Of a stretch of 64,000 bases of DNA, positions 5,001 to 37,600 are shown one piece after another. Made by a program: the position numbers and the translations under genes. This stretch comes from Typha latifolia (taxonomy: Eukaryota; Streptophyta; Magnoliopsida; Poales; Typhaceae). How positions within the stretch are numbered: the first letter of the stretch is position 1; the number at the start of each line of letters is the position of its first letter. The stretch is taken from contig CM034105.1 of the NCBI GenBank assembly GCA_019914945.1, forward strand, positions 9,362,001 through 9,426,000, read 5' to 3'. The notes below the pieces were generated by a model. That model made no database searches. It was not told the DNA's origin and worked only from the letters and a program-made list of their open reading frames with translations.

Positions 5001-8000
5001 TGAGACATCTTGCCTTTTTTAGCATCTTGCAACTTTTAACTTTTTAATGGTATATCAACCTTTCCTTTTATTTTCTTTTGAGTGTTTCGGTTTGGAAGAT
5101 AAAAATATGGCATTTGATAAGTAACTGTTGGAGGATCGAATAATTTGAATAAGGAACATTGTAGTTATATTCTCTGTATTGTTGTCTAAATAGAGCAACG
5201 TGTTTGGTGTTTTCAAAGGATTTTCTGCCTCATGCATATTTTGTTTCTTGTTTCTCTAGGGAAAGCCTCGGAAGTCACAAGAACACAAACCACTGTACTG
5301 CCCTGAAGTTATCCTGTGTGTGGAAATTTATCACAGGAATAACAATTCAGTAAAGGTATTGAAGGAGTATCTTGAGTTTACAAGAAATGCATTTGCAGGA
5401 TTGTTGCAGGATTGCTTTTCTTTTCTCCAGTCTATGTTCAAGGTGTTTTGTCATGCTGTAAGTAGATAGGGAGATCCAATGGATTATCACTTTCGTGCTG
5501 AGTAGTGTAAGTAGATCAATAGCATGAGTATGATCGTCCTCTTACTTGAATGTGCTATAGTAGGCTAGGATTGTTTGTGGCAGCTGCCATACTCTGCCTT
5601 GGGGTCCCCATTGTGCCTGCCATGTGGCTATCCATCATTATCCACCACCACTACAATAGCGTGGTGGTGAGAAAGGAAAACTTTCATGGCAGTCCCATGG
5701 AGGTTCTAGCGAATGCTTTTTAGTAGTTAGAACAATTGTCGCCATGGTGGCTGTCATGTGCCCATCTGCCATTGCCCACCGCCACAATAATAGCATGACA
5801 GTAAGAAAGTGAAACTTTCATGCTGCCGCCATGGTGGCCAGATCAGCTGCTTTTGGGAATAATGCCATTAACTATACTTGATGAGAATCTTCTCAATATA
5901 ATTGAACTTAGTTAATGATGCTCTGGTCATGTCTAACGGTATTGATGCCAAGTATCACATTTTGACTCCTATGTATTCACACCAAAGTTTGAACACAACA
6001 TTTCTTGCAATCTTCTATTAGTTGCATATAGTTATCAACTATCAAGAGTCAACAAATCATCAACATACAAGAAAATGTCAGTTGTCTATACTTGGGAAAC
6101 TTGTGACAGACATATGAGTGTGCCTTATGCATAGGACAAAACCACCTTAATGCAAAACATGGTGGAGAAAGATGAAAGAGAAAAATAAGAAGGGAAGGAA
6201 TGGGGTTTCACACCTCCACCCTAAGAAATGGTTTCACACCAAAATTCTCTAGAGAACAAAATCACATGAACTTTCATTAACCTCCAAAGAAAATATAATG
6301 GGTCTATATATAGACCTATAATGGAATTAATCAAAAAATACTCTACATAGGAAATAAACAAAAGACACTCTAAATAAATCAAAATCAGAACCAGATCCTT
6401 ATAGGAGGGATCATCAATTGTCGGCGCCTTCTGCGCTGGTACAGATGTCATCGCGTCCTATCAGTGATGTTCGCATCATTCTCCTCGGGTGGGAGAGAAG
6501 TCGACTCCGTCGAGTGTGCTGTTCTGTTGCTCTCATACTGCTCTAAGGTATCAGGGTGATGCACCTTCAAATCGTGATGATCAAGCCACGTGTCATCAGA
6601 TATAGGTCGTCCTTTCCAACATACTAGATATCATTGGAATCCACCTTCTCTAGTTGAAATAATTTCTTCATCTAAAATTTTATCAATTTCATCTGTTGTG
6701 TTAGGTAGAATATTGGGAAGTGGAGGTAAAGAGGGCCTCTCATAAATAGGCTCATTGGTAGGCTCAGTATTCAGTGGGTTATCTAGGGTAAAATCTGGAC
6801 CTTTATAAGCTACTAGATCCTCAATATTAAAAGTAGAACTAATACCGAAATCATTGGGGAGATCTAGAACATAAGCATTATCATTAATTTTCTTGAGAAT
6901 TTTAAAGGTCCCAAGACTTCGTGCATGCAACTTTTTTACAGTTCTAGGTGGGAATCGTTCCAGACGTATCCGGACCATCACAGTCTCCAACATTAAATTC
7001 TTTCAATCTCCTTTTTAGATCAGCTCGAATTTTATAATTAGTATTATTTTGAGCAATTCTGTTACTGATTTCTTTATGCAAGTCATGAATATGTGATGCG
7101 AATGCAGATGCAGACTCAGACAACCTATGATAATGGGACATATGAATGGGATCTATATGTTGTCTGGGTTTGTAACTATATACTACCTTAGTTGGACTCA
7201 GACCTATTGATTTATTAATAGAATTATCATATGCAAATTCAGCAGTTGGCAGTTTTTGATCCCAGTCTCTTAAATTCTCGCCGACAAGAGTTCTCAGTAG
7301 GTTACTAAAGCTCCTATTGACTACTTCAGTTTGCCCGTCAGTTTGTGGGTGGAAAGCGATTGAATACTGAAGCTTGGTTTCCATCTTATGTCATAAAGTT
7401 TTTCAAAAATAGCTAGTGAATTTCACATCCCTATTTGATACAATAGTTTTTGGTAGCCCGTGCAGCTTAACGATTTCATCAAAATAGATTTTAGCAACTC
7501 CAGAGGCGTCAAAAGTTCAGGAACAGGATATAAAGTGGGCCATCTTTGAAAATCGATCCACCATCACAAGAACGGAATCATGCTTTCGGATGATTTTTGG
7601 AAGTCCAAGTATGAAGTCCATACTAACATCTTGCCAAGAACAATTAGGAACAGGTAAAGGCGTGTATAATCTTGCCAAGAACAATTAGCGAGTTGACATG
7701 CATGACATCGACTAACAAGTCTCATAATATCTCTCTTTAAGCTTGGCCAGAAAAATCGATGTTCCGTAGCTTCAATAGTTTTCACATGCCCAAAATGTCC
7801 AGCTAAACCCCCTAGCATGCAATTCCCAAGTTAAAAATACCCTTAACGAGGTGCTGGGAATGCATAACTTTCGAGACTTAAATAGATAGCCATCCTGCAA
7901 GATGAAACCATCTATTTCTTGAGTCGCTCCATCACTTAATAAATTGTAAACTTTATGAAAATTCGGACATGATTCATAATCAGTTTTGATTTTATCAAAC

Positions 8001-11000
8001 CCTATTACTTCTGCATTCATCCTTGAAAGAAGAATCATGCGGTGACTCAGTGCATCAACCGCTTTGTTGTCTACTCCAAACTTATGTCGCAAGGTGTACG
8101 TATAGTCTTGGAGAAATTTAACCCACCTGCCATGTCTAGTGTTAAGCTTTTTCTGGGAGTTAAGGTAGGGAAGAGCTTCATGGTCAAAGAAAATTATGAA
8201 TTCTTGAAAAAACAAATAATGTCTCCAGTGGCGAAGAGATTGAACCATAGCATAAAATTCCTTATTGTAAGTGGTATACTGTTGTCTAGTTTCATTCAGC
8301 TTTTCACTAAAGTAGGTAATCAGATGACCTGCTTGGCTCAAGATTCCTTCTATACCAACTCCGGAAGCGTCACAAGTGACCTCAAAAACTTTAGTAAAAT
8401 CGGGGAGTCGTATAATAAGGGCTTCTATAATTTTCTTTTTGATTTCAGTGAAAGCTTTAGTGGCACTTGCTGACTACTCAAATTCAACTTTCTTGAGGCA
8501 TTATGTTATCGGAGCCATAATGGTACTAAACCCCTTGATAAATCAACGATAGAAGGTAGCGAGCCCATGAAAACTTCTCATGTCTCTTATGGTACAGGGT
8601 TCAGGCCATTCATTAATAGCTTTGACCTTATCAGGGTCAACAGATACTCCTTTATATGAAACTATGAAACCCAAGAAAATATCTTTGTTTGTCAGAAAGG
8701 TACATTTCTTAGGGTTTGCATACAGTTGCTCTCTCCACAAGACAACGCATACTTGACGAAGATGATCTATATGTTGCTCCCGAGATCGACTATAGATAAG
8801 GATGTCATCAAAGTATACGACTAAAAATTGTCCTATAAAAGGTCGTAATATTTGAGTCATCACTCTCATGAAAGTACTCGGAGCATTAGTCAAGCCAAAA
8901 GGCTTAATCGTCCATCGTCAATTTTCTCCTAGTTCTTCGTCTTTGGTAATTTGTGTCAAAAAGGGGGGGAGTTAGTTTAGAAGATATCGTTTGTTTAGAG
9001 GGAATAAGGAGTGAGTTTAGGAGTTTAGAGGGAGTATATTGAATATTAATTTGCTTAGTGACTTGACTTGTTTTATTGTGTTTGCTTGATGACTTAGACT
9101 TGCATTATTGTGTTTGAATTGTTTAGTGACTTTCATTATTGTTTAGTGAATATATGATCTTACACTTCAAGTTATTTTCACTAGATTTTGGATTGTTTTT
9201 TTTTTTTATTTGCGTTATTGAAGTGTTAAAATTTTTAGACTTATTGAATGCTCCTTTAGGATTCTTTGTAACTATTGTAAACTAGATATTTTGTCACAAT
9301 TTGCCAAAAGGGGAGATTGTTAGATTTTTAGTGTTGGCAATTGTGTACAAAATATTCTAAGTATTTTTATACATGCACATGAGCATTTATATAAGTTTAG
9401 GAAGTATTTGGTTTGAAGAATTGAAATATCAAAAGAGAAAAGTTTTCGTATTCACACCACGTTCACATGCGAGCACATGCGTTTGCACAGACAGAGAGTG
9501 ATGTTCACAGCGCGTTCGAACGTGAGCACAAGCGTTCGCACAGACAGAGAGTGCTGTTTCTGTGCGCGTTCAAATGCAGTTAAGGGCCGTTCGAACGCAC
9601 CCTGCTACGTTCACAACGCGTTCACACATGCAGAGGAGTGTTCTTGCCCGTTCGAACGCAACCTGTGAAAATCAAGCCGCCACGTTCGAACGTAGTTGGG
9701 TCTGTTCGAACGCACCTGAGATTAAGTCAGGCCGTTTGAACGCAACCAGGCTGCGTTCGAATACACTTACGTACGAACGTAGTTTGCAATTTTTGGACTT
9801 TCGTGAGTTTGGATAAGACTTGAATTTTGGTCTATCTTGGATATATATAAAAGCATTGTGATACCCTAACTCTAGGGTGGTTGGTGAAATAATTTGAAAG
9901 AGAATTTTTGAGGCTACATCGTTTCTTCAACCAACAAGGTCCGACTCTTCTATAAGGTTTAAACTTTCGTCTTAAGGGCTATCTAGACGAAAGATCAATC
10001 TCGAGGGCTACTGATGTTAGATATCAATCACGAGAAGCGGTGAATCATGAGTTCTAGCGAGCAAGACTGAGAGGAACAATATCGTGGAGATCGACGGGTT
10101 GTTTTATGAGTCAGTCTTGTAACTGTCATTATTCTAGTGATTAGTTTTGATCCGGGTTTGGATCCGTGATTTTTTCCCGTCTGGGTTTTTCCACGTTAAA
10201 ATATTGGCTTTCATCTCTGCTTTTGTTTTCTAATATTTCTTTTGATTTTTACTTAAGCAAATGAGTGATATCATTGTCTAGGGTTTAGATATATACGTGT
10301 GTCTAAGGATTCTTTCAATTTGTATCATAGCAAGTTCTCTTACCCTTAGGGCTAGATCAGATAGGCATGGATTTTCATAGAGATGGGCAATTGTTTATTA
10401 GACCTATTCTAGATGGATCAAATTATCGATATTGGAAAACTAGGATGAGAGCTTATTCGAAGTCTATAGATGAGTGAGTATGGATTACTGTTGTGAACGG
10501 TTAGAGTCTACCAATGTACTTGGTGAATGATAAGCTTGTTGAGAAACTGATGGAGTCGTGGGATATGGCAGATTATGAAAAAGTTGGATGGAATAGCAAG
10601 ACAATAAATGCAATTTTTAGTTGCATTTCTCAGAAAAATTTAGAAGAATTTCTATTTGTGAGATAACAAGAAAACCTTGGACGATCTTAGAAACTACTTA
10701 CGAATGAACTATGGCTGTAAAACTTTCGAAACTTAAGAGGTTGACTACTAGTTTTGAAACTCTACATATGGAGGAGAATGAGACATTTGATGAGTTTTAT
10801 GCAAAGCTGAGTTATATAGTCAACTATAGTTTCAATTTAGGAGAGAATTTTTGAAAACAGAATTATTCGTAAGATCTTTAGGTCTCTCCTAAAAAGGTTT
10901 CAGACAAAAGTTACAGCTATTAAGGAAAATAAGGACATCGATTCTATGAAGGTTGAACAATTGGTAGGAAATTTATAAATGTTTGAGTCTAGCCTTTCAA

Positions 11001-14000
11001 AACCTAAGAAGTCTAAAGGGATGGTTCTAACCACTGTTGAACAAAATTTAAAGGAGTCCGATGATGAAGGTGATTTAGATGTTGAGATGTTGGCCATGTT
11101 TATTAAAAATTTTGAAGGAGAATTCTTGAGGCTACATTGTTTCTTCAACCAACAAGGTCCGACTATTCTATAAGATTTAAACTTTCGTCTTAAGGTTTAT
11201 TTAGACGAAAGATCAATCTCGAGGGCTACTAAGGTTGGGTATCGACCACGAGAAGCGGTGAATCGTGGGTTCTAGCGAGCAAGAGGAATAAAGTCGTGGG
11301 AATCGACGGGTTGTTTTGTGAGTCAATCTTGTAACTGCCATTATTCTAGTGATTGGTTTTGATCCGAGTTTGGATCCGTAGTTTTTTTTCACGTTAAAAT
11401 CTTGGCGTTCATCTCTGCTTTTGCTTTTTAATATTTCTTTCAATTTTTTTTTTAAGCAAATGAGTGTTATCATTGCTTAGGGTTTAAATACATATGTGTG
11501 TCTAGGTGTTTTTTTAATTGGTATCAGAGCAAAAGAAAAACCTAAAAAATGAAAAGTAATAAAAACATGCAAACCAAAACATAAATCCCTAAAAAACCAG
11601 TCCAAAGCACAAATCTCTAAAGAAGTATAAAGATACTCAAATTTCTGTATATCTAAAGGTTTTGTAAACAAATCACCTAACTGTTTCTCCGTCTCAACAT
11701 GTTTCAGTGCTATTACTTTGTTTTTAACTAACTCCTGTATAAAATGATGTCGGATATCATTGTGTTTTGTACGCGAGTGTTGAACATATTTTTTCGATAT
11801 ATTAATAGCATTTATATTGTCACAAAGCACCATCAATACCATAGTCTTTGACCATCTATTTCATCCACAATAATTGAGAGCAACAACTACTCGCTGCAAT
11901 TTACTCGGCCTTTGCAATGGATATCGAGTTTCGTTTCTTACTGTGTCAAGCAACCAGATTATTTTCAACATAAAAACAGCCACCTGAGATACTTTTCTGT
12001 CATCACATGAATCTGCTTAATCAGAATCTGTGTATATATGATAGCACCCGAGTCATAAGTAAACCAGATATCCAATTCAACTGTGTCACTGACATATTTT
12101 ATGATACGTTTCACGGCAAACAAATGTATCTCCTTAGATTCAAACTGAAATCTAGCACACACACACCCACACTAAATGCAATGTCTAGTCTAGTAGCAGT
12201 TAAGTGCAAAAGACTACCAATTATGCTCCTATATAGTGCCTGATCAACACTTTTTCTTGAAATATCTTTTTCTAGTTTGGTAGTTGTACTCATATGAGTT
12301 CTGATATGTTTTGCATTTTCTAACCCAAATTTCGTCACAAGATCTTTATCATAGTTGCTTTGAGCGATAAAAATCTCTCTCCAATTGAGTAATTTGAAGT
12401 CACAAAAAGAACTTTAACTCACCCATTATACTCATTTCAAAATGATTGTGCATGAGATCTGCAAACTTCTTAACTAAAGATTGACTCATTGCCCCGAAGA
12501 CATTGTTATCTACATATATTTGTGTCACAACTAAACTCTTGTTCTCACGTGTAATGAATAATGTCTTATTCACTTTCCCTTAAGTGAACACCGCATCCAT
12601 TAAAAAGTGGTCAACTTCTCATACCAAGCTCTTGGAGCTTGTTTCAGCCCGTAGAGAGCCTTTTTTAATTTAAACACATGAGAAGAAAATTTATAATCTT
12701 CGGAACTTATAGGTTGTTCCACATATACATAATCTTTGGAGAATTTTACCTCATAATCTTTATCACAAAATTGATTGATGCACAGTAGATTTGCTTTCAA
12801 GCCTTTAACATAAAGGACATTTTCAAGAATAGGAACACCTAGAGTACTTACCTTTCCCTTACCTATTACCTTGATTGAATTACCATCTTCAAATGTCACA
12901 ACTTTCCTTTCATGTTCTTCAAGATTAGAACATAAAAATTTGTCATCCGACATATGTCTTGAACAACCACTATCTAAATACCATAAGTTAGAATTTAAAG
13001 TTTTTAAGGCAGTATGCACAACATAACATTTCAAGTCACTTTTCTTGTCCCATATGGCTTTTGATTTTACCCCATAAATGCACTCCTAGGTTTTTATAAA
13101 AATTTGCAATGAGATCGAATATGCCCTAGAATTTTGCAATGAAAGCATGTTTGAACAAACCCTTTTTTACTCACCTTTTGTTGATGAGTGTATCTAAAGT
13201 TTACCTTGGCCGTCGTTAAAGATTTATCGGTTTGTTGATTCAACTTCAGTTTAGAGACATTCATCTAGAATTGCTTTGTAAATGTGGTTGATGACCTCAG
13301 GTTTTCTTCCTTTTATATACTTGCAGAAACAAAGATAGTTTTATTATTATTTGAATTACCAGTGTATCTAATACCATACTTGCCTTTTCTAGAAATCTGA
13401 GCGTTTAAAATCTCGTCAAGTTTGTTCTTTCCTTTAAGAAATGTCACTTCCTTCTGCAATCACTCTAGTTCAATTTCATCAGCCTTCATCTTATCTTTTG
13501 CATCGTCAAGTTGTTGAGTAAGGTTTTTGACATGTTCAAGTTCCAATTTGTACTTCTCAAATTAATTTCTTTTTTATTCGATTACCTTGAGTCGTTGAAG
13601 TAGTCTAAGATTGCTTTTCTTGAGTTTGAACGACTCTAGGTACAAGTCATTATATGGCTTTTGTATTTCTGATTCTTCTTCCTCAGCTGATAACACATTC
13701 TGATCATCGGTACTATCAGAATCAACAACAAAGTCAGTATTAAAAAGAAAGGAGATGAAAGCTACTAAGTTCTTTTCGTCTTTCTCAGAATCATCATCAG
13801 ATTTATCTTAGTCATCCAAAGTGACTTTCATAGCTTTACCCTTTCTCTTAAGACGATTAGGGCATTCTTGTGCGATGTGTCCAAAACTAGAACATTCAAA
13901 ACATCGAACTTTATTATCATAATTTTTATTTTTCTGTTTCACATTGTTGTTGTTCACCCTAGTATTCAAACACGGCCAACATCTCAACATCTAAATCGCC

Positions 14001-17000
14001 TTCATTATTAGACTCCTTTAAATTTTGTTCAACAGTGGTTAGGGCCATCCTTTTGGACTACTTAGGTTTTGAAAGGCTGAACACAAACGTTTGTAGATTT
14101 CTTACCAATTTTGTTCAACAGAAGTTAGGGCCATCCTTATTTTCCTCAATAGCTGTAACTTTCGCCTGAAACCTTTTTGGGAGAGACCTAAGGATTTTAC
14201 GAACAATTATATTTTTAGGAATTTTCTGTCCTAGGTTGAAATTGAAGTTGATTATATCATGCAGCTTTGCATAGAACTCATCAAATATCTCATTCTCCTC
14301 CATATGTAGAGTTTCAAAACTAGTAGTCAACCTCTGATGTTTCGAAATTTTTACAGTCACAGTTACTTCGTGAGTAGTTTTTAAGATCGGCCAAGTTTTT
14401 TTTGCTATCTGACAAATATAAATTCTTTTAAATTCTTCCAAGAAAACACAACTAAAAATTGCATTTATTGCCTTGCTATTCTATCCAATTTTTTTATAAT
14501 CTGCCCTATCACACGACTCCAACGGTTTCTCAACAAGCTTATCATTCACCAAGTACATTGGTGGACTCCAACCGTTCACAACGACAATCCCTACTCGCTC
14601 ATCTATAGACTTCAAGTAAGCTCTCATCCTAGCTTTCCAATATCGATAATTTGATCCATCTAGGATAGGAGGTTTAATAGATAATTGCCCATTTCTATAA
14701 AAATCTATGCCTATTTGATCTAGCTCTAAGGGTGAGAGAACCTGCTGTGATACCAATTAAAAGAACACTTAGACACACGTATATATTTAAACCCTAGGCA
14801 ATGATATCACTCATTTGTTTAAGTAAAAACCAAAAGAAATATTAGAAAACAAAAGCAGAGATGAAAGCCAATATTTTAACGTGGAAAAACTCAAACGGAA
14901 AAAAATCACGGATCTAAACTCGGATCAAAACTAATCACTAGAATAATGACAATTGCAAGACTGACTCACAAAACAACTCGTCGATCTCCACGACATTGTT
15001 CCTCTCAGTTTTGTTCGCTAGAATCCACGATTCACCGCTTCTCGTGATTGATATCTAACCTCAGTAATTCTCGAGATTGATCTTTCGTTTAAATAGCCCT
15101 TAAGATGAAAGTTTAAACCTTGTAGAAGAGTTAGACCTTGTTGGTTGAAGAAACGATGTAGCCAAATCCAAGTCTTATCCAAACTCACGAAAGTCTAAAA
15201 ATTGTAAACTACGTAAGTGCATTCGAACGCGGCCCGGTTGCGTTCGAACAACCTGATTTGGTCTCAGGTGCGTTCGAACGGATCCAACTACGTTCGAACG
15301 TTGTAGCTTGGTTTTCATAGGTTGCGTTCGAATGGGCAAGAACACTCCTCTGCATATGTGACGTGCTGTGAATGAGCAGGGTGCATTCGAACGACCCTTG
15401 ACTGCGTTCGAACGTGCGCAAAAACAACATTCTCAGTCTGTGCAAACGCCTGTACGAACGCCACTCTCTGTCTGTACGAATGCCTGTGCTCGCGTTCGAA
15501 CGCGCTGTGAACGTGGTGTGAACGCAAAGCCTTTTCTCCTTTGATCTTGCAATTCTTCAATCCAAATACTTCCTAGACTTTTATAAATGCTTATGTACAT
15601 GTCAAATGCTCATGTACATGTATAAAAACACTTAGAATATTTTGTACACAATTGCTAACAATAAAAATCTAACAAGGGACAGTGAAAACACAGAAATAAA
15701 CTCAGGGCCAGAAATGGAACTTAATCCATTCAGGAATTTCCAGAAAGACGAAATAGAAACACTAATCATGAGAACCCAAAATGGGGAACAAGTTGTAAGG
15801 AAAGGGAAAATATTTGTAAGAAATACTGAGGCCTATTTTATATACAGAAATCAAGATTCTAAGATACACAATTATGCAACATGGCCACTACAATTAGTAA
15901 GACCCATGACTCCTAAGGAAAAGAACATCGAACAAGCAGCTGTTAGCAGATACTATGGCGAAACCAAAAGAGCAACAAGCATCATTTTAAAATCTAGTCA
16001 ACCAGACGAATGGGGAGACACTATTAGAAAAGAAATTCTTAAAGGAACTTTTAAAAATAATTGAGAAAAATCCAAAACCAGAAGAACTCTCATATACAAA
16101 ATTGAAATAGCTTTAAATGGGGAAAAAACCAATGGATGACTAAAGATTAAATTCAGAATAAATTGAAGACGATTTTCTGAAGACAATAATCCGAAAAATT
16201 GCATATGTAATTAAAAATCAGAAGATTCTCCGACGAGTGAGCATCGTCTTATTTGCAAGTGAAATAGACGATCTTCCGACATCGCCTTACTAGAGCTAAG
16301 AGGCATCAGTTATCAATCTGTTGTATTCGGGGATCCTCGCATCAAAATATGATTTGCTTCGGTCCAAAACTCCCTTCGCTCGAGCAAAAGAAAAGCACTT
16401 GCTCTAGTAGAATTTAGTCTCCTTCTCGCTCAAACAATTTCCACTTACAAACCGGTCGGGGTTTTACATCTCCTTACTAAAGATGTGACGGAACTTAAAG
16501 TTGAGCTTGGAGAAGTATGACTGAGGTTCTCAAGGAGGGAGCTACAGAAGAGAAGCAAAAAACCTATCCACTCTCAAAACAAAAAACAATAAAGTTAAAC
16601 CATGAATACAAACAAAAACACCTCCATCAGAAGGTTTATTCTGATAACCTTGAGTCATGCAGAACTTAGGAAAACAGTATATCCCATTAATATTGTTGAA
16701 AGAACTCAGAAAATTTTCTATTGTCAAGCCATTGTTGTTGCAAAGGAAAACTACGAGAAAGAAGGGTACCACTATCATGTAGGAATACTTGCGGATAATG
16801 CTTCCAAAAATACTGCGACTAAATTCGTAAGGAAAAAATTTGATGAATGGGATGGAAGAGTTATCCATGTAAAATTTCATAAGTCATGGGCAAGTGTTGT
16901 TTCTTACATTCTTAAAGAAGATGAAAAACCATTGATATGGGGAGATTTTAGTTTGGCTCAACTCAAAGATATTTGTAACAAAAAAAAAACCAGCATAAAA

Positions 17001-20000
17001 AGATAGAAAAACCTACACAGGGGGAGCTTCTGGAACGATTAGAAGAAAAAAAAGATATACTAGAAATCTATGACGACGACCTACTTAGAGAAAAGATACT
17101 TTCCGCACTCCTGAGAATTAAGGAAGCCTTTGAGGATCTAGTTATAAGAAAAATGAAAACAGAAACTTGGGAAAGTAGAATTAAGGCTTACTTAGAAGAA
17201 AAGGGAAATCCAAAGGAATACACTATTGAAGAACTACAGGAAAAGTATCTACTTTTGGACTGGATAGCATATCAATTGTGCTTCAGAAGACCTTTAAAAA
17301 CAAAACAACTTTTCTTATATGGGGAACCAAGTACACAAAAAACTTTAATTTTCTAACTTTTACAAAAAGTTTTGAATATATACTTTGTTAGTTCCAAAAG
17401 GAATGATTTTACGAGAGCGAATAACTATTATGATTTATGGGTCTTTGATGAATTTCATGAACCAAGTGAAGACTCTGGGATTCAAGGTACGACAAAAGAG
17501 GGAACCGCTTTTGCTAATACCATTTTAAAAGTACTAGATGGACAAGAATGTAGACTTGATTCAAAATATGCTAGGATTTTTACCAAAAGGCAAAATGTAC
17601 CCATTATTATGATTGCGAACAGTCTGCCCTCAGCTATGCTGAAACATGGACCCTTCAGAGCAAGATTTGAAGGGGTTGGTTTCAAGTTAGAGAGGGAAAA
17701 TTTTGAAAATTGGAAATATTGGAGTGAGAAAAAAAAGACAGTTTGGTAAAGGTTTAGGAAAGATAGGATTTGCTGGGATGTTGAGAAGAAATAGGAAATT
17801 TGGTAAGAAGTTTAGGGAAAGAAGGAATTGGTTGGGATTTAACAGAAATTAAGAGCCAAAAATGAAAATTTTTGAAATTTTGAAACATTGAAAATTTCTT
17901 TTTTTTTTTTTTTTTACACCAAAGAGACATGCTATTTTCTCTCTTTCTTTTATTTCAGCAGAAGAGACGTGTTGTTTTCTCATTTTTTTCTCTTTTTTTC
18001 TTTTTTTTTCAATCTATAAAAAATAAATAAAGATGGAACAGTAGATCACTGAATAATGCAACAACAATTAATTTTTTGAAGGACTTGGAATTTTACGCGG
18101 TGGTGATTCTGCTATGACAACACTCTTTTTGTTCCTCGTCGACGGTAATTTTCTTGCTCGTCTTGACATTCCGGTGTTCGTGGAACGATTGGTCGTGCGA
18201 AGAATAAATGTGGAGCGGCGTAGAACCTAGGAGGAGGGACGTCCATAAACTAGGATCCTTCGCTCTGATACCAAAAATGATGCAAAACGTGGTGGAGAAA
18301 GATGAAAGAGAAAAATAAAAAGGGAAGGAATGGGGTTTCACACCTCCACCCTAAGAAATGGTTTCACACCAAAATTCTCCAGAGAACAAAATCACATGAA
18401 CTGTTATTAAGCTCCAAAAAAAATATAACGAGTCTATATATAGACCTACAATGGAATTAAGCAAAAAACACCTTACATAGAAAATAAACAAAAGACACCC
18501 TAAATAAATCAAAATTAGAACCAGATCCTTATAGGAGGGATCATCAACTGTTGGCGCCTCCTGCGCTAGTACATACGCCGTCGCGTCTTATCAGTGATGT
18601 CCGCATCACACTTGTAATGCGACTGTTAACTTCATCATGTTCCTCCTTTTTTTAAACTATTTTCATATCTGAAGGCTTTTTTGGAGACTTCTAGGTTACA
18701 TATTACAGTCGTCATCTATGATGGATAATAAGTTCCTTGCCTAATTAAACCTTTTCGATTGTCTTCATTTGGTTTAGCTTGGGGCTACTTACCAGGATTA
18801 CATGTGCCAGAGTTTAGTTATGATGACACCTATCAATTTTTCATGGAGCCTTCCAATTTTTGCTGATTTATCTACTCTGCTGAAAGGATTGGATCATGGT
18901 GATGAGCGGTGGCTTATTGGAACTTATCTTCTTCATCCTTGTTATTCGCTCTTCATTTTTGTCAATTGTAATATTGCCCGGCAAAATAGACACTAATCCA
19001 GATCATGGATATGTTTATTCATTGGTCATGAGACTCATAACATCATGCTTGAAGCAGATAGTTAACAAAGTACAGTCCATTCCTGAAAAAACTAGCTTCC
19101 ACTTCTTTGAATTTTTTAATTCTACTACTATAGCAAGTCTCCTGAATATACACTACACTAATATCTTTAGCTCATCATAGTATTTTAATTACATTTCAGA
19201 AAATATGTCAGGTTGAAAATAGAAACTGTCTTTCTGATCCTGAGAAAATTTAAAACTGAATGTTAATGAAGACAGTGATTCCTGATTTAACACAGAATAA
19301 AAGTATCTCATTTTTCTTTTACTTTCAAGATGTATGTATCTTCTAAACTGCCTAGCTAGTAAGATTAGGATAATTGCTACGTGTTAGATGGCATATCATT
19401 TGTTTGAATGTTAATCATATACAATTTTTCATCTCTCAATATTTATTATTGTGGTATTTTGATGCAGACCCAAGAATTTCTAGTTTTGGGTAGCCAAATC
19501 CTTACGGAGCTAAGGGACAATATTTACTGTTTGACGGATAAACTGATGGAGACAGCAGGGCAACATGATCCTTCTGGTTATTTCCTCATTGAAGTATAGC
19601 CTATGTTTATGTTCAACTCGAATTATTGATTATTCCAGATATATTACTAATGTTACTAATGCTCGTTTTGTTTGTCACTCTTTTCTCAATGCAGGATACC
19701 TTCTGCAATGATTTGAGAAATCCTTCTGCTAATGACTATAGTAAACCTATATTTGACTGGCTTAAGAGTTGCAAGTCTGAGGCAGAAGAGAAGTGGGAAG
19801 TCATAATGTCTGGTATATTGAAGAAAAAGCAAAAGGAGTTGTTAGGGGATTTAGAGATATCCAAGATACCTAACTTTAAAGCTGCGGAGATGCATAAAAC
19901 TCAATTTTCTGACCTGAGATTTCGACTTGGTGCTGGATATTTATACTGTCATCAGGTGCATTCTTCTCTCTTAACAGTGCAGTAAAACTTCACATTCTTT

Positions 20001-22760: not shown

Positions 22761-23790
22761 ACACAAATATGTGGGCTATGCAATTTATACGCATATACCA
22801 CACGTCACCTATTTAATTTATACATATTGACTATGCAAAATGTATGGTTTAATCATTAAAATTTTATAAAAATGTAATATATTATTTATGTAATTTATAT
22901 GCATTGATTATACAAAATATATGTTGCAATTTTAAATAAGGTTATAGTGCAATTTTAAATAAGGGTACGATGCAAATTTAAATAAGATGCACATCAAGAT
23001 TTTATAAAAATATAATGCATCACCTATGTAATTTATGCGCATCGACAATACAAAATATACGGTGCAATTTTAAATAAGGTGCATTGAGATTTTATCAAAA
23101 ACACAATGCATTACCTATATAATTTATGCATATCGATTATGTAAAATGTACTTTGTAATTTTTAACAAGATACGCATCGAGATTTTATAAAAAACGTAAC
23201 ATATTGCTTATGTAATTTATACACGTTGAATATACAAAATATACACTATAATTTTTAACAAGGTACATATCGAGATTTAATAAAAAAAATATCATGTATC
23301 ACTTATATAATATATATGCATCGACTATATAAAATGTTTAATAAGGTATGCATCGTGATTTAATAAAATATGTCATATATCGCCTATATAATATATATGG
23401 ATCGACTATACAAAATGTATGTTGTAACTTTTAACAAGGTACACATCGGGATTTTATAAAAAATGCGACGCATCACTTATGTAATTTATATGCGTTAACT
23501 ATGCAAAATATATACTGTAATTTTCAACAAGTACGCATTGAGACTTAATAAAAAATATTATATATCACTTATGTAACTTATATACATCGACTATGCAAAA
23601 TATACGCTTAAGCATTAAAATTTTATAAAAAATATTACTTATGTAACTTATATACATCGACTATACAAAATATACGTTTAAGCATTAAAATTTCATAAAA
23701 GATATTACTTATGTAACTTATATGCATTAGCTAGGCAAAATATATATTATAATTTTTAACAAGATACACATCTTAGACTCAAAAGAAAAC
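22760..23790 (+). repeat. Degenerate AT-rich tandem array, units about 60-100 bp
   Basis: About eleven diverged copies of a unit containing ATGTAATTTATATGCAT, CGACTATACAAAATATACG, TTTTTAACAAGGTACGCATC and GAGATTTTATAAAA. Successive ACYTATRTAA landmarks lie near 23022, 23113, 23206, 23301, 23382, 23475, 23576, 23636 and 23706. Spacing is about 90-95 bp at first, then shortens to 60-70 bp. No coding potential. Confidence 0.8.
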
Positions 23791-28150: not shown

Positions 28151-29955
28151 TGTCACGACCCAAAATAGAAATCATGGCCGGCTATGCATCTCAATATGCT
28201 TGAGATGCAAGAAGCTTTATTAATACTCTCTAAAGTGTACGATGGCAAAATAATAATAATAATAATAATAAATTAAATGAGAATGTGCTTTATTAAATTT
28301 TGTAACTAATTGCAATAAAAATATAAAACAATGTTAATGTTTTTGAGTCTCTAAACTAAATAAATAAAATGTCTAATCTAAAGCATAAAATCAAAAGAGC
28401 GGAAAGGTAAATAGGTGAATCATAAGTGGAGGTGGAGTCCGGGTACATCTCGCTCAGTCGCCCCGCTGACTATTACCTGAAATAAATACAAAAACAATAG
28501 AACCCATGAGCCAACAACTATAGCTCAGTGAGTGGAATCCACTCACTAACCAAATAAATTTTAATTCATATTAATGCTGAATAAATTTAACTAAAAGCAA
28601 CAATATCCATCACAATATGCAATAGGCATGCTCTCTAAATAATAACAATGATAACAATAGAGAGAGATGTTACAACTTGTAACCTTGCACGTTTTCAACA
28701 TATTAACATCTTTTGATATTTATACTGTCATATGTCTCAATGGGTCTAAACCCTGTGGATCCACATCAACTAGAAGTCACCTTGAGATGACGCTCGGGAC
28801 TTTTCTTCATAGTTGATCCGGTTAGGGTCATCAGAGGGTATCATCCTGTGATTAACACACTGTCTTTTCCTCTAACCGTTGAGAGAAGTTAGAGTCACCT
28901 AGAAATTTTTCTCATTCATCCTAGGACTGTTCCCTAACCCCGCCAGAGTCACCTAAGAAAGTCACCGCAGTGATTTAATTTAGGACTTTCCCCTGGACTT
29001 CCAAATAGACTTGAGTCACCACGAAAAATCGCAAACGATTTATACCGGGACTGTTCTCTAAGTCGTATAAATACTAGTCTCATTTTTCTTTTCACAAATT
29101 TCAATATTTGCACGAAGTATGGTGATGCACTAAATATAATAATTAAATGCACACAGAAAATAAAACAATTAAATTTTTGCACGTACGGATGAAATAAATA
29201 GATTTGCACACAGAATTTGCAGTAATTTAATTTTTACACATAAGGGTGAAATAAATAATTTGCACACAGAAAATTTACATGGTCTGACAAAAATACGAAA
29301 TACAGTAAAATAAACATGTGAGTGAACCCACTCACCTGAGTCTAGGCAAGACAACCGAAATCTCAAATCTCTAGCTCACGTAGTAGAAATCACCACCTTA
29401 AATAATAAATAATATTCAAATTTTTAATTTGAATAATATCAATATTTCTAAAATTTAAGAAAATAAAACTAAAAGAAAAACTAAAATGGGTTTAACCCAC
29501 CCATTGGATTGGGCTGGGCTACTGCTGGCCCGGCCCATTCCAAAAATAAGGCTAATCGGGCTGGGCCAAAGCCCAGCCAAAAAAAACTAATCGGGCTGGG
29601 TTAAGGTCCAGCCAAGAAAATGGATTGGGCTGCGGTTTAGCCTGCAGCCCATCCAATTTAATTGGTTCGAGTCGGATCTGTGGATCCGAAATCCAAACCC
29701 GAACCTGAACCCAATCCGAATTTAAAAGAAAAGGGGGTTTCCAAGAAAATGGATTGGGTTGCGGTTTAGCCCACAGCCCATCCAATTTAATTGGTTCGGG
29801 TCGGATCTGTGGATCCGAAATCCAAACCCGAACCCGAACCCAATCCGAATTTAAAAGAAAAGGGGGTTGGCTCGGGTTAAACCTGAGCCCAACCCATCCC
29901 TTCTCTCTTCTCGCGTCCGACACGAGGAAAGGAGAAAGCTAGAGAGAAATCCATC

Positions 29956-31660: not shown

Positions 31661-34600
31661 CTGAATCAAGACAAAATAATCATGTTAATGTACAAATTAC
31701 AATAACAATCAAAAGCTGGTATAAAACAGATTGCTTCTTGCTTCTAAAATTGGAAAATACAATTTTGATTATATTTGTTGCGAAAAAATCTAAAATTGTT
31801 GTTGATCTGCCATAAGATAAACTATATGATGGCTCATTTTGTTGTAATAGTTTGACGGATGGCTCAATATTAGAATTGTGTCAACATTTCAAATTCCAAA
31901 ATCAAAAGCTCTTGATATCATATAACTTGTCAATAACCCTAAATAACATGTAAAGTGTTTCAGATATGATACAGGCCAGAGAAACTGTAATTTACTGAAA
32001 ACTAAACTGCTAAATATTCATAAGAAGAAAATGTTGCCCAATGAATGTTGATGAGAACATTATGAGACTAGTTCATGTAATGCAGACATGCTGACACTTG
32101 TGGACATGCATTCTTCATATTCTAAAATTCTCTTCCGATAGCCTCATTATGTTTGCATGTTCCAGAATCCAGATGCCTTATCTAGTAGATGAAAATTTTC
32201 TCCCATTTTGAAAGAATGCACCAGGCTCTTTCAACCTAGTGAGCTACAGTTCTTTTGATTGCTAGGCAATTCCAAAAATCTCCATCACATGTTACATGTT
32301 TTAGCAGTTAGGCAAGAAAAGGAATGGTATGGCTTAAACATTCCAACAGCAAACAATGTTAAAAACTAGTTAATGACATCATATGTCTGAGGGAGATCTA
32401 TTACGCATCATATGAAAACAAAAGAAATGGTCCTAATAACTATAGGTAGCAACAGATATGCTATTTAGCTTCTTTGTAGAAGAGCTAAGATGGAAAAGAT
32501 ACTTCGAGGTGGAAAAGGGCTTCAAAGTATGGTTATGTTTACAATAGGAGTCAGCTGAAATGCCAATTTAATTTAATGCGCCAAATGAGAAAGAGCTTTT
32601 CTTTTATTATATAACACTCTTTCCGAATCAGTGGTTTACAGTGAAGACAAACAGCTGGATAATTACGTAGCAAAAACTCACCTGTATTAGTATTATATTT
32701 GGAAACTCAGCCAATGAAGATTATCGTTTCATTTGGAAAGTTATTTTGGCCAAAAACTCTGGATAATGATGCTTCCGTTTTCTTATGCACAAGATTTCGA
32801 CGATGCAGATTAACAAGATCTATGCTATAATTGAATGCTTGGAACTAGATTATTTTAGTTATTTTCTTTTCTGAAAATTTACTTTTGGATCTATCTTCTA
32901 GAATATCTTGTCTCCTTTATAATTTCTAAAACTTCAGATATTAGAACTTCAGATGATTTTAAATTTAAAGAGTCCTAGTGTTGTTCCAGATTGACTTTAC
33001 ATTTGTGATTTCGTGTTATCTAGTAATTTAACTAATAACTTTATACAATGCTAAGTTGAATATAGGTAATTTTATCATGAAAAATTAAAGGAAAATTCTA
33101 TTGTGGAGAATTCCATGGATCCTAATTTTGGTCGATCCTGAGAAGGATTGGGATTTTGGCCATAATCGATTCCGATCTTATACCGAAACTAGTATGATGG
33201 CTGGTTTCCATCTAGAAGAATATAAATAGTTTCGATCTGGAAAACATCAGTAATTAATGTCCCCAACTGCCCTCTTTTTAAAATTTTCAGCTTTTACTCT
33301 CTATCTGTTACACACTCTCCTCGCACCACTCACACTTCACCGAACTCATTTAACGGCTAATGCAATAAGCTCTTCCAACTTCGCACCTTTAGTGAACTAA
33401 AGACTTTTACCCGCTCCGCTTGCTGAATTATAACTTCAAGATCATGATGAAGGTCTTAGCTTATAGGCTTCACTAGGTTATGGGAGATTTGATCCTAGAT
33501 AGCTAGACGATGTTCATCCAAGGAAGGTCCATCTTGGACAACTTCGCGGTGATGCATGAACTTCTCTCGTGGGTGAATATGACAGGGTCCTCAGTGTTGC
33601 TCATTAAACTTGACTTCGCCAAAGCCTTTAACAGTGTTCGGTAGGACAACCCTCTTTTCTATTCTTTAGGCAAGAGGATTTCTAACCAAATGGATAGAAT
33701 GGATCAAGCTTTGCCTAACCTCCTCCTAGGCTGCCACTTTCATCAACGGGTTTCCCTCTAAATCGTTCAGTCTATGTGAGAACCGAAAAAAAAAGAAAAA
33801 AAAATAGGGTTGAGAGAGGAGGGTGCAGGTGCTCTGCACGTGCAACCCCCTCCCCTCTCCCTCTCCGGCACGCGACGAGGCGCAGTGGAGATCTCGCCGA
33901 ATTCGAATCAAATTGGATTTGGATTTTTTTTTAATCTATAAATTAAACCCTAATTTTTCTTTCTCTCCTCAACCCCTCCCCTCAACCATTTCCCTTTTCT
34001 TCTTCTTCTCCTCCTTCGTTTTCTTCTTTCTCACCGTCGGAGTCATCCCGTGGAATCAGCCTGTCGGAGTGTCATCAGAGCCATCGGAGACCACCACGTG
34101 ACTCCCTGGTAAGCCCTCTCCCACACCTCAACCTTAATTTCAATTTAATAGGTTAAAATAGAAATACCAAATTTGTGGGATTTCAGCTTCGCTGGCAACT
34201 CATGCCGGCCGGCGACTTCGGGTTGCTGTCTCTCCTCCACTAGAAGCCTCTTGTCGTTGGTTTCGTACCATAGGTGTTCACCTTGGAGCCCTCGTGGCTC
34301 CAGTCGTCGTCGGCTTTTGAGTCGGCTGTTTGCGGTGGGTTCTGCTCCACCTCGTGAGGACGGCGAAGTCGCAAGAGAGTCGAGGGGCTTGAGGTGTGGT
34401 CGTTGAACCGTCGCCGGCGGTCACTCTCTCCCTCAATTCTTCTCTTCCTCGCGTCGATCGCGGGAAGGGAAGGATTTGGTTGGGCTCGGGTTTAACCCGA
34501 GCCAACCCTTTTCTTATGATTTTCGGGTTTGGGTTCGGGTTTGGATTTCGGATCCAAAGACCCAACCCGAACCACTAAAATTGGGTGGGCTGCGGGTTAG

Positions 34601-37600
34601 CCCATAGCCCAATCCATTGTTTTGGCTGGGCCTTGGCCCAGCCCGATTAGTTTTTTTTTGGAGTGGGTCGGGCCAACAGTAGCCCAGCCCAATCCAATGG
34701 GTAATTTCACCCATTTTAGTTCTTTTTAGTTTTTAAATTTTAGAAATATTGATATTATTCAAATTAAAAATTTTATTATTATTTATTATTAAAGCTGGTG
34801 ATTTTTAGCATGTGAACGAGAGATTTGAGATTTCAATTATCTTACCTAGACTCTAGTGAGTGGATTCACTCACATATTTATTTTTATTATATTTCGTACC
34901 TTTGTCAGACAATGTAATTTTCTGTGCAAATTTATTTATTTCATCCTTACGTGCAAATTTAATTGTTATATTTTCTGTGTGCATTAAATCATTATATTCA
35001 GTGCATCGCCATATCTTGTGCAAATATTAAATTTTAGTGAAAAAAAGAGACTAGTATTGGTACGACTTAGAGAACAGTCCCGGTATAGATCGCTTGTAGT
35101 TTTTCGTGGTGACACAAGTCTATTTAGAAGTCCAGAGAAAAGCCCTAAATCAGATCACTGCAGTGACTTTCTTAGGTGACTCTAGCGGGGTTAGGGAACA
35201 ATCCTAGGAAGAATGAGAAATTTCCTAGATGACTCTAACCTCTCTCAACGGTTAGTGAAAAAGACAGGGTGTGTTGATCATATAGTGACACCATCTAATG
35301 ACTCTAACCAAATTAGCTATGAAGAAAAGTCTCAAGCGTCATCTCGAGGTGACTTCTAATTGATGTGGATCCATAGGGTATAGACCCATTGAGACAAAAG
35401 ACAGTATAAACATTGGAAATATGTTAATATGTTATAACTCTATTGTTATCATTGTCATTATTTAAAGAGCATGCCTATTGCAAATTATTATGTATATTGT
35501 TGATCTTAGTTTTTATTCAACACTAATAAATTTTAGAATTTATTTGGTTTTTGAGTGGATTCCACTCACTGAGCTATAGTGGTTGGCTCATGGATTTTTT
35601 TTTTATTTTTTATTATCTCAGGTAATAGTCAGCGTGGCGACTGAGCGAGACGTACCCGAACTCCACCTCCACTTAGGACCCACCTATTTACCTTTTCGCT
35701 CTTTTGAAGTTTATACTTTAGATTAAATGTTAAATTTATTTCGTTTAGAGACTCAAAAACAATGACATTATTTTATAATTATTGCAATTAGTTTAAATTT
35801 AATAAAGCAGATCTTCTTCATTTATTTATTCTTGCCATTGTACACTGGAAGTATTAGTAAGGCTTCGTGTATCTCAAGCATATTGAGGTGCATGGCCAGT
35901 CATGATTCCTATCTCGGGTCGTGACAGTCTAGGCTAAGGACTTTGTTAAAGGGACCCCTTGTCACTCCTCTTATTCATCTTGGTTGCGGACTTGGAAGCG
36001 AGGATGCTAAAGAAGGCTCATGCTGATGGCCTCATTTAGGGCTGAGGCCTTTATCTGAAACCTATATCTTTTAGTTTGCCAACAACACCCTTCTCTTCTA
36101 CAAGGCCACATAAGACTTTATCTCGAACCTCAAATTTGTCATGACATTATTTGAACTGGTGGTTGATCTATCCACCAACTTGGACAAATCCTACCTTCGT
36201 CCCTTCCGATGGGCAGAATCAGAGGTGGATTCCTCCTATTGGGCCAATCTCTTTGGCTGCTCAATAGGCCATTTTCTAATTCAATTCTTAGGCCTTCTCC
36301 TTAAGGTGGGCCCGCTGAGCATTTTTTTTTTCATTTCTTTTTTCTTTCTTTCTCACGTGCTTTTTAATTCTCTTTTCTTATTGTTGTCAAACATAATGAA
36401 GAGAGATAGAAATCTCTCCCTCTTCATTTCATTTTTGGGGTGGTAATTTACAAGCATAAAAACTTACAAATCCAGCTCGAAATTCATCATGGTTCTAGAT
36501 AAGTGTCTTTTTTTTTTAAATTTATAGACTTCATATGTGAGTAGTATTTATTTTCTTATTTTTCTATCATATTTTCTAATTATTTAAAAAATTCTTTTAT
36601 TTTTAAATAATATCTAAAGTTGTACAAAATAAAAGATAGTCTGATCTGATACAGGTGATCAATATGACCAGACAATATGATTGATACGATCGATATATAT
36701 CGTTTTATTTTTTTGTGGTCATTCTTGATCTCAATCCTAAGTTTCAAAACCTTAGAGATTTCATATATACTTGCTCCTCCTTTCTCCCTAGTAATCATAT
36801 GGATTAGCCTTCTATTCGCCAAAGCCTGGTGCGCCATCTTTCTTTTGTTCCCTTAATCTAACCTTGCTAAACTAGAAAAGATACTTGGAGGTGGAATAAA
36901 AATTATGAGATGCCTTATCTTTACTCTTCTTGGCTGTGGATCTAAGTACCTCTATTTTTTCTATCAGCAATCTTAATATCCTGCATTACATCAAGATACT
37001 TCCAAGGCTAAAGATATAATGTTAGTTTAGAAACCATAAGTACCAGGCATAGAACCTCTCTGCTGTGAAGTAATTTTCGTTATAAACTTAAGCAGCTCCA
37101 GCTAAAGTTTATTATCTTAAGAAAAGTAAAAACCTTAGTATATGGCATACAACTAGTACTAAAATGAATGGCTAACTTGGGGTATTTCTGTAGCTTGGTG
37201 CTATAAGATTATCCAAAGACTGACTTGTATGATTTTATATAAAAGTTGACTTCTCAAATCTAAAACTCGTAGTAACTGTTCTTAGAACATTAATGACCAT
37301 AGCATAAAGATGAGTAATTGTAATTGAGTCAACGTGCCGTAGTTATCAAAATTAGATGGACATTGACTTGATTAGAGGTCGGGATACTTGGTTATTGGTT
37401 CAAACGGTATTTCACCAAGTCAGATCACTCGTTTTTTCAAAAAATATTTTAAAAATATTTAAAAATAATATATAGATAGTACTAAATAATTCAAAAAACC
37501 ATCTATAAAAGCATTACAATCCTATGCCTTCTATTACTTAGTCATTTTTAACTAATCTTTATGTCTAACAATATCAAATTTTAAAAACTTACAGTTCAGC

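What the first reader, a model, noticed from the sequence alone, without database searches (positions are those of the whole stretch)
15675..18608. CRESS-virus-like Rep gene inside a gypsy LTR retrotransposon, antisense, near the primer-site leader
Seen: HUH motif HYH, YILK motif, Walker A-like GEPSTQKT, Walker B VFDEF and motif C ANS in order, lying between GYP1's copia block and its 5' LTR, on the strand opposite to the retrotransposon. Known: endogenous geminivirus-like rep sequences occur in several plants, but as direct integrations. Inferred: here the rep lies within the LTR boundaries, so it may have been carried by the retroelement.
Basis: partly seen in the sequence, partly recalled or inferred. 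Interest (0 to 1): 0.9.

Follow-up and report, generated by a model that had tools for sequence, protein, structure and literature searches.

The report
Rep-gene fragment stranded inside a retrotransposon
A two-kilobase broken piece of a virus- or plasmid-like replication gene sits inside one plant retrotransposon copy, but it most likely landed there as a repair patch, as smaller pieces did elsewhere in the genome, and was not carried by the retrotransposon.

Summary
Between a copia LTR end (15674) and the leader of a minus-strand gypsy element (LTRs 6148-6478, 18278-18608) lies a plus-strand, broken Rep-like gene: HUH endonuclease, linker and SF3 helicase pieces at 16602-17668. The family is real: 19 database proteins match the helicase piece, including Salix purpurea at 73%, and one matches the HUH piece. 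The carriage idea fails. None of 36 other leader places listed runs into rep, and none of 17 rep places compared has the element in its fetched flanks. At the junction, GATTT is shared: another rep copy continues past it as rep, other LTR copies as retrotransposon interior. Rep DNA also occurs at 22 other places as pieces of 39-485 bp, sharp-edged where fetched. One interrupts a high-copy repeat whose other scored copies lack it. Differences from the window concentrate at third codon positions (57 of 99), so the source gene was apparently under selection between captures. I read this as repeated end-joining capture from an unclassified Rep replicon. Its source is unknown; one plant mitochondrial contig holds a broken relative.

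The parts
6148..6478 (-). 3' LTR of the gypsy element
   Evidence: 92% identical to 18280-18608; 30 differences in 333 aligned sites over a slightly wider stretch, K2P 0.098
7772..8473 (-). gypsy pol remnant (reverse-transcriptase RNase H)
   Evidence: PF17917 E 1.1e-29, PF17919 E 7.7e-25
8915..8916 (.). end of gypsy interior; other material follows to the right
   Evidence: another copy (L075, C2:8995000-8998050) matches 7942-8915 at 91% and then diverges
8916..15674 (.). rearranged nested copia material, with head-to-head LTR/gag copies (9317-11532 and 13968-15675) and pol remnants
   Evidence: self-comparison; PF14223 at 14115-14480; Pol_BBD and RVT_2 at 12600-13085; copia LTR end at about 15674 repeated over 30 times in the genome
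15675..17668 (+). captured fragment of a Rep replicon
   Evidence: 15 fetched places elsewhere match sub-pieces between 15818 and 17668; 15675-15817 is matched by none of them
16602..17006 (+). rep piece 1: HUH endonuclease domain (HYH, YILK), open frame
   Evidence: relative P0020 at 51% over 79%
16979..17356 (+). rep piece 2: linker and Walker A (GEPSTQKT), in another frame than piece 1, ending in an in-frame stop
   Evidence: L016 and L076 have no stop at that codon, L029 does not cover it
17357..17668 (+). rep piece 3: SF3 helicase Walker B, motif C and arginine-finger region, cut at GATTT
17664..17668 (.). 5-bp GATTT shared by rep and LTR leader: the junction
   Evidence: L016 continues as rep; L017, L018 and the window's second element at 43846 continue leftwards as element interior
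17664..18277 (-). gypsy leader, including a primer-site-like TGGTATCAGAGC on the minus strand (18262-18273; tRNA match recalled)
   Evidence: shared, whole or in part, by 36 other genomic places; sequence
18278..18608 (-). 5' LTR of the gypsy element

Best explanation
A fragment of about 2 kb from an unclassified Rep replicon (HUH endonuclease plus SF3 helicase; virus or plasmid) was inserted into one gypsy copy by DNA end-joining, using a 5-bp overlap at the leader side. The gypsy gag-to-RT interior is missing, and copia material lies beside the fragment. The same replicon left many smaller fragments across the nuclear genome by separate captures. Shown: the right-hand junction, the absence of rep from the other LTR copies examined, the scattered pieces with sharp edges, an interrupted repeat at one of them, and third-codon-position bias between pieces. 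Inferred: end-joining as the mechanism, rolling-circle replication of the source, and the order of copia insertion and deletion.
For: Junction: at 17664-17668 the window switches from rep to LTR leader. L016 (C1:5253232) continues as rep beyond it, with similarity to P0002 up to residue 179 of 198. LTR family: 36 other places carry leader sequence and none covers rep (leftmost match 17654); 34 of the 36 reach to within 10 bases of the junction. In one search, of 61 loci with LTR-family sequence (several overlapping, two of them the window's own) rep DNA occurs only in L045, the window's own; a 62nd locus in that list, L011, is a rep place listed there by mistake. Left flanks of other copies align with each other as retrotransposon interior. 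Pieces: 17 other places for 16590-17668 and 5 for the upstream part, on 13 of contigs C1-C15. For the 15 fetched, identity outside the matched piece is 3-16 of 40 bases per side, except the right side of L016, which could not be tested because the query ends there. None of the 17 places compared (these 15 plus two at protein level) has LTR, leader or gypsy pol within the fetched flanks. Empty site: the L076 piece lies at query 449-628 of a repeat; no other row covers 453-624, and in examples such as C3:10014543/10014554 the two repeat halves are 10 bp apart. Selection: differences between the window and all 11 fetched rep-gene pieces fall 26, 16 and 57 on codon positions 1, 2 and 3 (binomial P 6.5e-7); without L029 23, 14 and 42 (P 2.2e-4).
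Against: The left junction with gypsy DNA is not preserved: copia material intervenes, so a simple insertion cannot be shown on that side. Piece edges coincide somewhat more than random placement gives: 3 pairs within 1 bp, reached by 132 of 5000 random placements; 6 within 4 bp, reached by 98 of 5000. That could mean hotspots, or some pieces derived from one another. Two pieces (L076, L081) lie in copies of the same repeat family. L078 and L086 share 161 bp at 94%, more than each shares with the window there, so some edges may be divergence, not breaks. The codon test takes one third as its null and treats related pieces as independent. No source replicon was found in viral contigs or, with one piece each, in phage or plasmid records. 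No confident fold was obtained.
Confidence: 0.83

Rival explanations
1. The gypsy family acquired rep and carries it as an extra antisense gene.
For: Rep lies inside an LTR pair with a 4-of-5 target-site match outside it, on the strand opposite to pol.
Against: 0 of 36 other leader places run into rep (34 reach the junction). Rep DNA is found only in the window's own locus among 61 loci with LTR-family sequence. Rep pieces elsewhere have no LTR-family sequence in the fetched flanks (0 of 17 places). The gene is broken by a frame change and a stop.
Confidence: 0.04
2. Reverse-transcriptase template switching joined a rep-containing transcript to gypsy RNA, so the chimaera was inserted as one retroelement.
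For: Short homology at the junction and LTRs at both ends fit template switching as well as end-joining.
Against: It needs a rep transcript packaged antisense. The pieces elsewhere, lacking LTRs nearby, need another mechanism anyway, and a capture into an unrelated repeat is seen at L076.
Confidence: 0.08
3. The source was a mitochondrial plasmid or mtDNA-borne element, so the nuclear pieces are NUMT-like (this is a refinement of the best explanation, not exclusive of it).
For: A degenerate relative lies in a 117-kb contig of a Frankia assembly (locus 44% GC) that encodes a plant-type mitochondrial Nad2: the four best chains score 371-384 bits, the next group 154 (species of the chains recalled). 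Short scattered pieces resemble NUMTs (recalled).
Against: The host's own mitochondrial contig C60 (395,057 bp) gave no rep match. Plant mtDNA also takes up nuclear and viral DNA (recalled), so one degenerate copy there does not prove origin.
Confidence: 0.3
4. DNA transposons (Helitron or Pack-MULE type) captured and spread the pieces.
For: L076 and L081 lie in copies of one repeat family, and some piece edges coincide.
Against: The other copies of that repeat scored (40 of 4377 candidates scored) lack the rep piece, and the two pieces are different parts of rep. Terminal structures of such transposons were not looked for.
Confidence: 0.08

Closest known systems
Endogenous geminiviral elements of plants (survey PMC7758297; section 19 and passages read)
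   Same: Broken Rep genes (HUH plus helicase) integrated in plant nuclear genomes, some beside transposable elements.
   Different: All extended loci analysed in that survey carry a geminivirus Rep Pfam domain (section 19). No window piece matches such a domain; the only Pfam hits of the rep pieces are two weak unrelated ones for piece 2, E 0.07 and 0.1. Here the copies are small dispersed pieces, whereas the survey describes hotspots in the four richest genomes.
CRESS-DNA virus Reps and the red-alga and phytoplasma plasmids related to them (PMC6668415, passages read)
   Same: Domain order HUH then SF3. Relative P0020 reaches Gemini_AL1 at E 0.011 and REP_ORF2-G2P at E 0.021, both below cut-off.
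   Different: No database family places it above cut-off; Walker A has Q where G is usual (usual form recalled); no capsid gene was found in the fragment.
NUMT/NUPT-type nuclear inserts and end-joining filler DNA (recalled)
   Same: Short, sharp-edged, dispersed pieces, one in an otherwise uninterrupted repeat.
   Different: The source is a Rep replicon, not seen in the host's own mitochondrial contig.
Circular plasmid-like DNA of Carpinus mitochondria (PMC8558628, section 16 read)
   Same: About 2.9 kb, low GC, matching nuclear sequences on different chromosomes.
   Different: Its two reported ORFs are F-box-like and a methylation-factor-like protein, not Rep.

Membership tests
CRESS-DNA Rep (HUH + SF3) | HUH motif and Tyr motif in order | tested here: met
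   HYH and YILK in 16599-17006; P0020 has HYH and Y..K at the aligned places
CRESS-DNA Rep (HUH + SF3) | SF3 Walker A, Walker B, motif C in order | tested here: met
   GEPSTQKT, VFDEF, IMIANS, largely conserved in relatives that cover them; Walker A is atypical at one position (recalled consensus)
CRESS-DNA Rep (HUH + SF3) | Match to a curated Rep profile | tested here: inconclusive
   Window HUH piece: no Pfam or NCBIfam match at E 10, only unnamed PHROGs at E 0.015 and 0.17. P0020 sub-threshold to two Rep families; P0001 sub-threshold to AAA and to P4 primase C-terminus
CRESS-DNA Rep (HUH + SF3) | HUH and SF3 fold | tested here: inconclusive
   Mean pLDDT 47 (HUH piece) and 42 (P0001); fold searches run for the HUH model only, no hit at E 0.001 in two libraries
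CRESS-DNA virus | Capsid gene | tested here: not met
   The upstream frame 15669-16061 has no relative and no coding bias; the fragment is partial, so a capsid gene elsewhere in the source is not excluded
CRESS-DNA virus | Circular single-stranded genome | not testable with these tools
   only integrated fragments are in hand
Geminivirus (endogenous geminiviral element) | Gemini_AL1 domain above cut-off | tested here: not met
   (family search of the genome) gave 0 matches but its controls also rang nowhere, so it says nothing
Gene carried by an LTR retrotransposon family | Same gene at the same place in several copies | tested here: not met
   0 of 36 other leader places; 1 of 61 loci with LTR-family sequence, the window's own
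End-joining capture (filler DNA) | Sharp edges, short homology at junction, uninterrupted target elsewhere | tested here: met
   short homology was examined at the window junction only, and the left junction in the window could not be tested because copia material intervenes
NUMT | Source sequence present in mitochondrial DNA | tested here: inconclusive
   Not found in host contig C60; a degenerate relative in another plant's mitochondrial contig

The most novel reading that the evidence does not exclude
Land plants harbour, or harboured, a so far unnamed family of small Rep-encoding replicons, possibly living in mitochondria, distinct from geminiviruses. Fragments of it are repeatedly stitched into nuclear chromosomes as repair patches, so that a genome keeps a time series of a gene that stayed under selection outside the nucleus.
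Probability: 0.35. Interest if true: 0.75.

Novelty: new variant of a known kind. Interest (0 to 1): 0.5.

Why it matters
It replaces a striking but unsupported idea (a retrotransposon carrying a viral replication gene) with a testable one: an unclassified plant-associated Rep replicon whose fragments record repeated DNA capture. If the source is mitochondrial, it would offer candidate replication genes for plant mitochondrial plasmids, whose origins and functions one paper calls unclear (PMC8558628, section 16). It also warns that a nested position within LTRs is not evidence of carriage.

Tried and rejected
Rejected: carriage by the gypsy family; the upstream frame 15636-16064 as a replicon gene; geminivirus membership. 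Led nowhere: viral contig scans with pieces and alignments (7, 16, 24 and 78 candidate stretches, none confirmed); phage records with the HUH piece and plasmid records with the SF3 piece; Rfam on 18 loci and on 2 loci (0 matches); tRNAs in L088 (none); contig C61's first 500 bases against phage records (none); solved structures by sequence (none; three designed-repeat chains, best E 0.0004, judged chance from composition); structure models too weak, so the fold searches carry no weight. Ten paper searches (PubMed Central open licences only) listed no paper that I recognised as describing this Rep family. Papers were seen as listings, except five opened in part. Of these, PMC11528492 was seen in passages only and PMC9389341 gave no passage for the terms asked. 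The host species was not determined.

Counts left out or partial: one search scored 40 of 169 candidates, 40 of 236, 40 of 274, 40 of 388, 40 of 4377, so family sizes are lower bounds. The listing was cut at 40 lines per query. Of 22 other rep places at DNA level (17, 5), 15 were fetched and 7 were not; two more places are known at protein level only (L006, L008/L011). In one search the rows matching only the copia LTR end were set aside. The weakest rows (39-57 bp) may include chance matches. In one search one rep place (L011) stood in the list of LTR loci by mistake.
Full report
What is there. On the plus strand, window 16602-17668 holds three pieces of one Rep-like gene. Piece 1 (16602-17006) is an open frame with HYH and YILK in the order of HUH replication endonucleases. 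Piece 2 (16979-17356), in another frame, carries a linker and the Walker A-like GEPSTQKT and ends in a stop. Piece 3 (17357-17668) continues in the same frame as piece 2 with VFDEF, IMIANS and an arginine-finger-like end. No window piece matches a Rep family in Pfam; the only Pfam hits of the rep pieces are two weak unrelated ones for piece 2 (E 0.07 and 0.1). But the family is real. Piece 3 has 19 protein relatives at E up to 1, among them P0001 of Salix purpurea at 73% identity over 76%. Piece 1 has one, P0020, at 51% over 79%. P0020 reaches two Rep families below cut-off (Gemini_AL1 E 0.011, REP_ORF2-G2P E 0.021), and P0001 reaches AAA and P4-primase C-terminus below cut-off. Structure models were too weak to use. 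Calling it a CRESS-like Rep therefore rests on motif order, conservation of the motifs in relatives and these weak profile matches.

The surroundings. A gypsy element on the minus strand spans LTRs 6148-6478 and 18278-18608 (92% alike, K2P 0.098), with a 4-of-5 target-site match outside. A sequence like the initiator-tRNA primer site (recalled) lies just inside the right LTR, and RNase H coding remains at 7772-8473. Against another copy (L075), gypsy sequence in the window stops at 8915. From 8916 to 15674 there is rearranged copia material. The rep fragment occupies 15675-17668; pieces elsewhere match 15818-17668 of it.

Was rep carried by the element? The right junction answers. At 17664-17668 rep and LTR leader share GATTT. 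In L016 (C1:5253232) rep continues past this point towards its C-terminus. In other LTR copies the sequence continues leftwards as retrotransposon interior that those copies share with each other (the listing was cut at 40 lines per query). In one search, 36 other places carry leader sequence and none continues into rep; 34 of them reach to within 10 bases of the junction and 2 stop short. Among 61 loci with LTR-family sequence compared (several overlapping, two the window's own; list checked), rep DNA occurs only in L045, the window's own. Of 17 other rep places compared, none carries LTR, leader or gypsy pol in the fetched flanks. The gypsy copy is a landing site.

Rep pieces across the genome. 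One search found 17 other places matching 16590-17668, and one search found 5 matching the upstream part, on 13 of contigs C1-C15. For the 15 fetched, the matched stretch is 48-485 bp, and outside it identity is 3-16 of 40 bases per side; the right side of L016 could not be tested there because the query ends. The 180-bp piece at C1:10329948 (L076) lies in a high-copy repeat. In one search, 40 other rows match the left half and many places also the right half, no row covers the rep part, and the two halves are 10 bp apart in copies such as C3:10014543/10014554. That is a direct view of a clean insertion. Two further places at protein level (L006, L008/L011) are more distant, 50-64% identity.

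The source was apparently alive between captures. Between the window and all 11 fetched rep-gene pieces, differences fall 26, 16 and 57 on first, second and third codon positions (binomial P 6.5e-7 against one third). Without L029, the strongest, they fall 23, 14 and 42 (P 2.2e-4). In the first count L029 was significant alone (15 of 20), while L016, L076 and L002 were not. Neutral decay after one ancient integration would not be expected to give this, though the test treats related pieces as independent. The upstream frame shows no such bias (8 of 29 third positions) and has no protein relative.

Where did it come from? Scans of viral contigs, and of phage and plasmid records with one piece each, gave nothing. 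A prokaryote genome scan gave one locus, L077, in a Frankia assembly. Stretches of its contig are 44-45% GC, and the contig ends in a nad2 exon whose four best matches are plant-type mitochondrial Nad2 chains (371-384 bits, against 154 for the next; species recalled). So it is most likely plant mitochondrial DNA carried along in that assembly, and the rep relative there is broken. The host of the window has its own mitochondrial contig, C60 of 395,057 bp, identified by nad2 at 95%. No rep match fell on it. A mitochondrial source is therefore possible but unproven; a nuclear-replicating virus is equally open.

Mechanism and certainty. Most likely, double-strand breaks were repaired with pieces of a free Rep replicon. 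At this site the gypsy interior between leader and reverse transcriptase is missing, removed in the repair or by another event, and copia material lies beside the fragment. The right junction, scatter, sharp edges, interrupted repeat and codon bias are shown. The end-joining route and the order of events at the left side are inferred. Not explained: piece edges coincide slightly more often than random placement gives. Some edges may be divergence rather than breaks: L078 and L086 share more with each other than with the window.

Novelty. Endogenous Rep genes in plants are known (PMC7758297, section 19 and passages read), and all loci analysed in that survey have geminivirus-type Rep domains. 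This family lacks such a match, is shared with Salix and with a plant mitochondrial contig, and is dispersed as small pieces. I rate it a new variant of a known kind. Ten paper searches (listed in Tried and rejected) showed no description of it that I recognised, within the open-licence library only.

Noticed in passing
window 9317-11532 and 13968-15675: Two copia LTR-plus-gag segments lie head-to-head (78-91% complementary in pieces), a rearranged nest inside the gypsy element.
   Followed up: partly
window 42452-44690: A second short LTR element (LTRs differ at 24 of 359 sites) whose leader at 43846-44020 is 85% identical to the window gypsy leader; same orientation as the first.
   Followed up: partly
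L077 / NZ_CADDZT010000057.1: A 117-kb contig of a Candidatus Frankia meridionalis assembly looks like plant mitochondrial DNA (44-45% GC in the stretches read, plant-type nad2).
   Followed up: yes
G000:C60 and G000:C62: C60 (395,057 bp) matches plant mitochondrial nad2 at 95%; C62 (32,710 bp) matches the same exon at 81%, perhaps a diverged copy or other material.
   Followed up: no
L076 and L081: Two different, adjoining rep pieces (17242-17421 and 17420-17471) lie in copies of one repeat family, in opposite orientation relative to that repeat.
   Followed up: partly
rep pieces, window 15818-17668: Edges of separate rep pieces coincide: 3 pairs within 1 bp (132 of 5000 random placements reach this) and 6 within 4 bp (98 of 5000).
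   Followed up: partly
window 22777-23765: AT-rich tandem array with units of about 70-93 bp, copies 61-83% like the reference.
   Followed up: no
window 28151-29735 and 34506-35926: Long inverted repeat pair (77% over 1.6 kb) about 5 kb apart.
   Followed up: no
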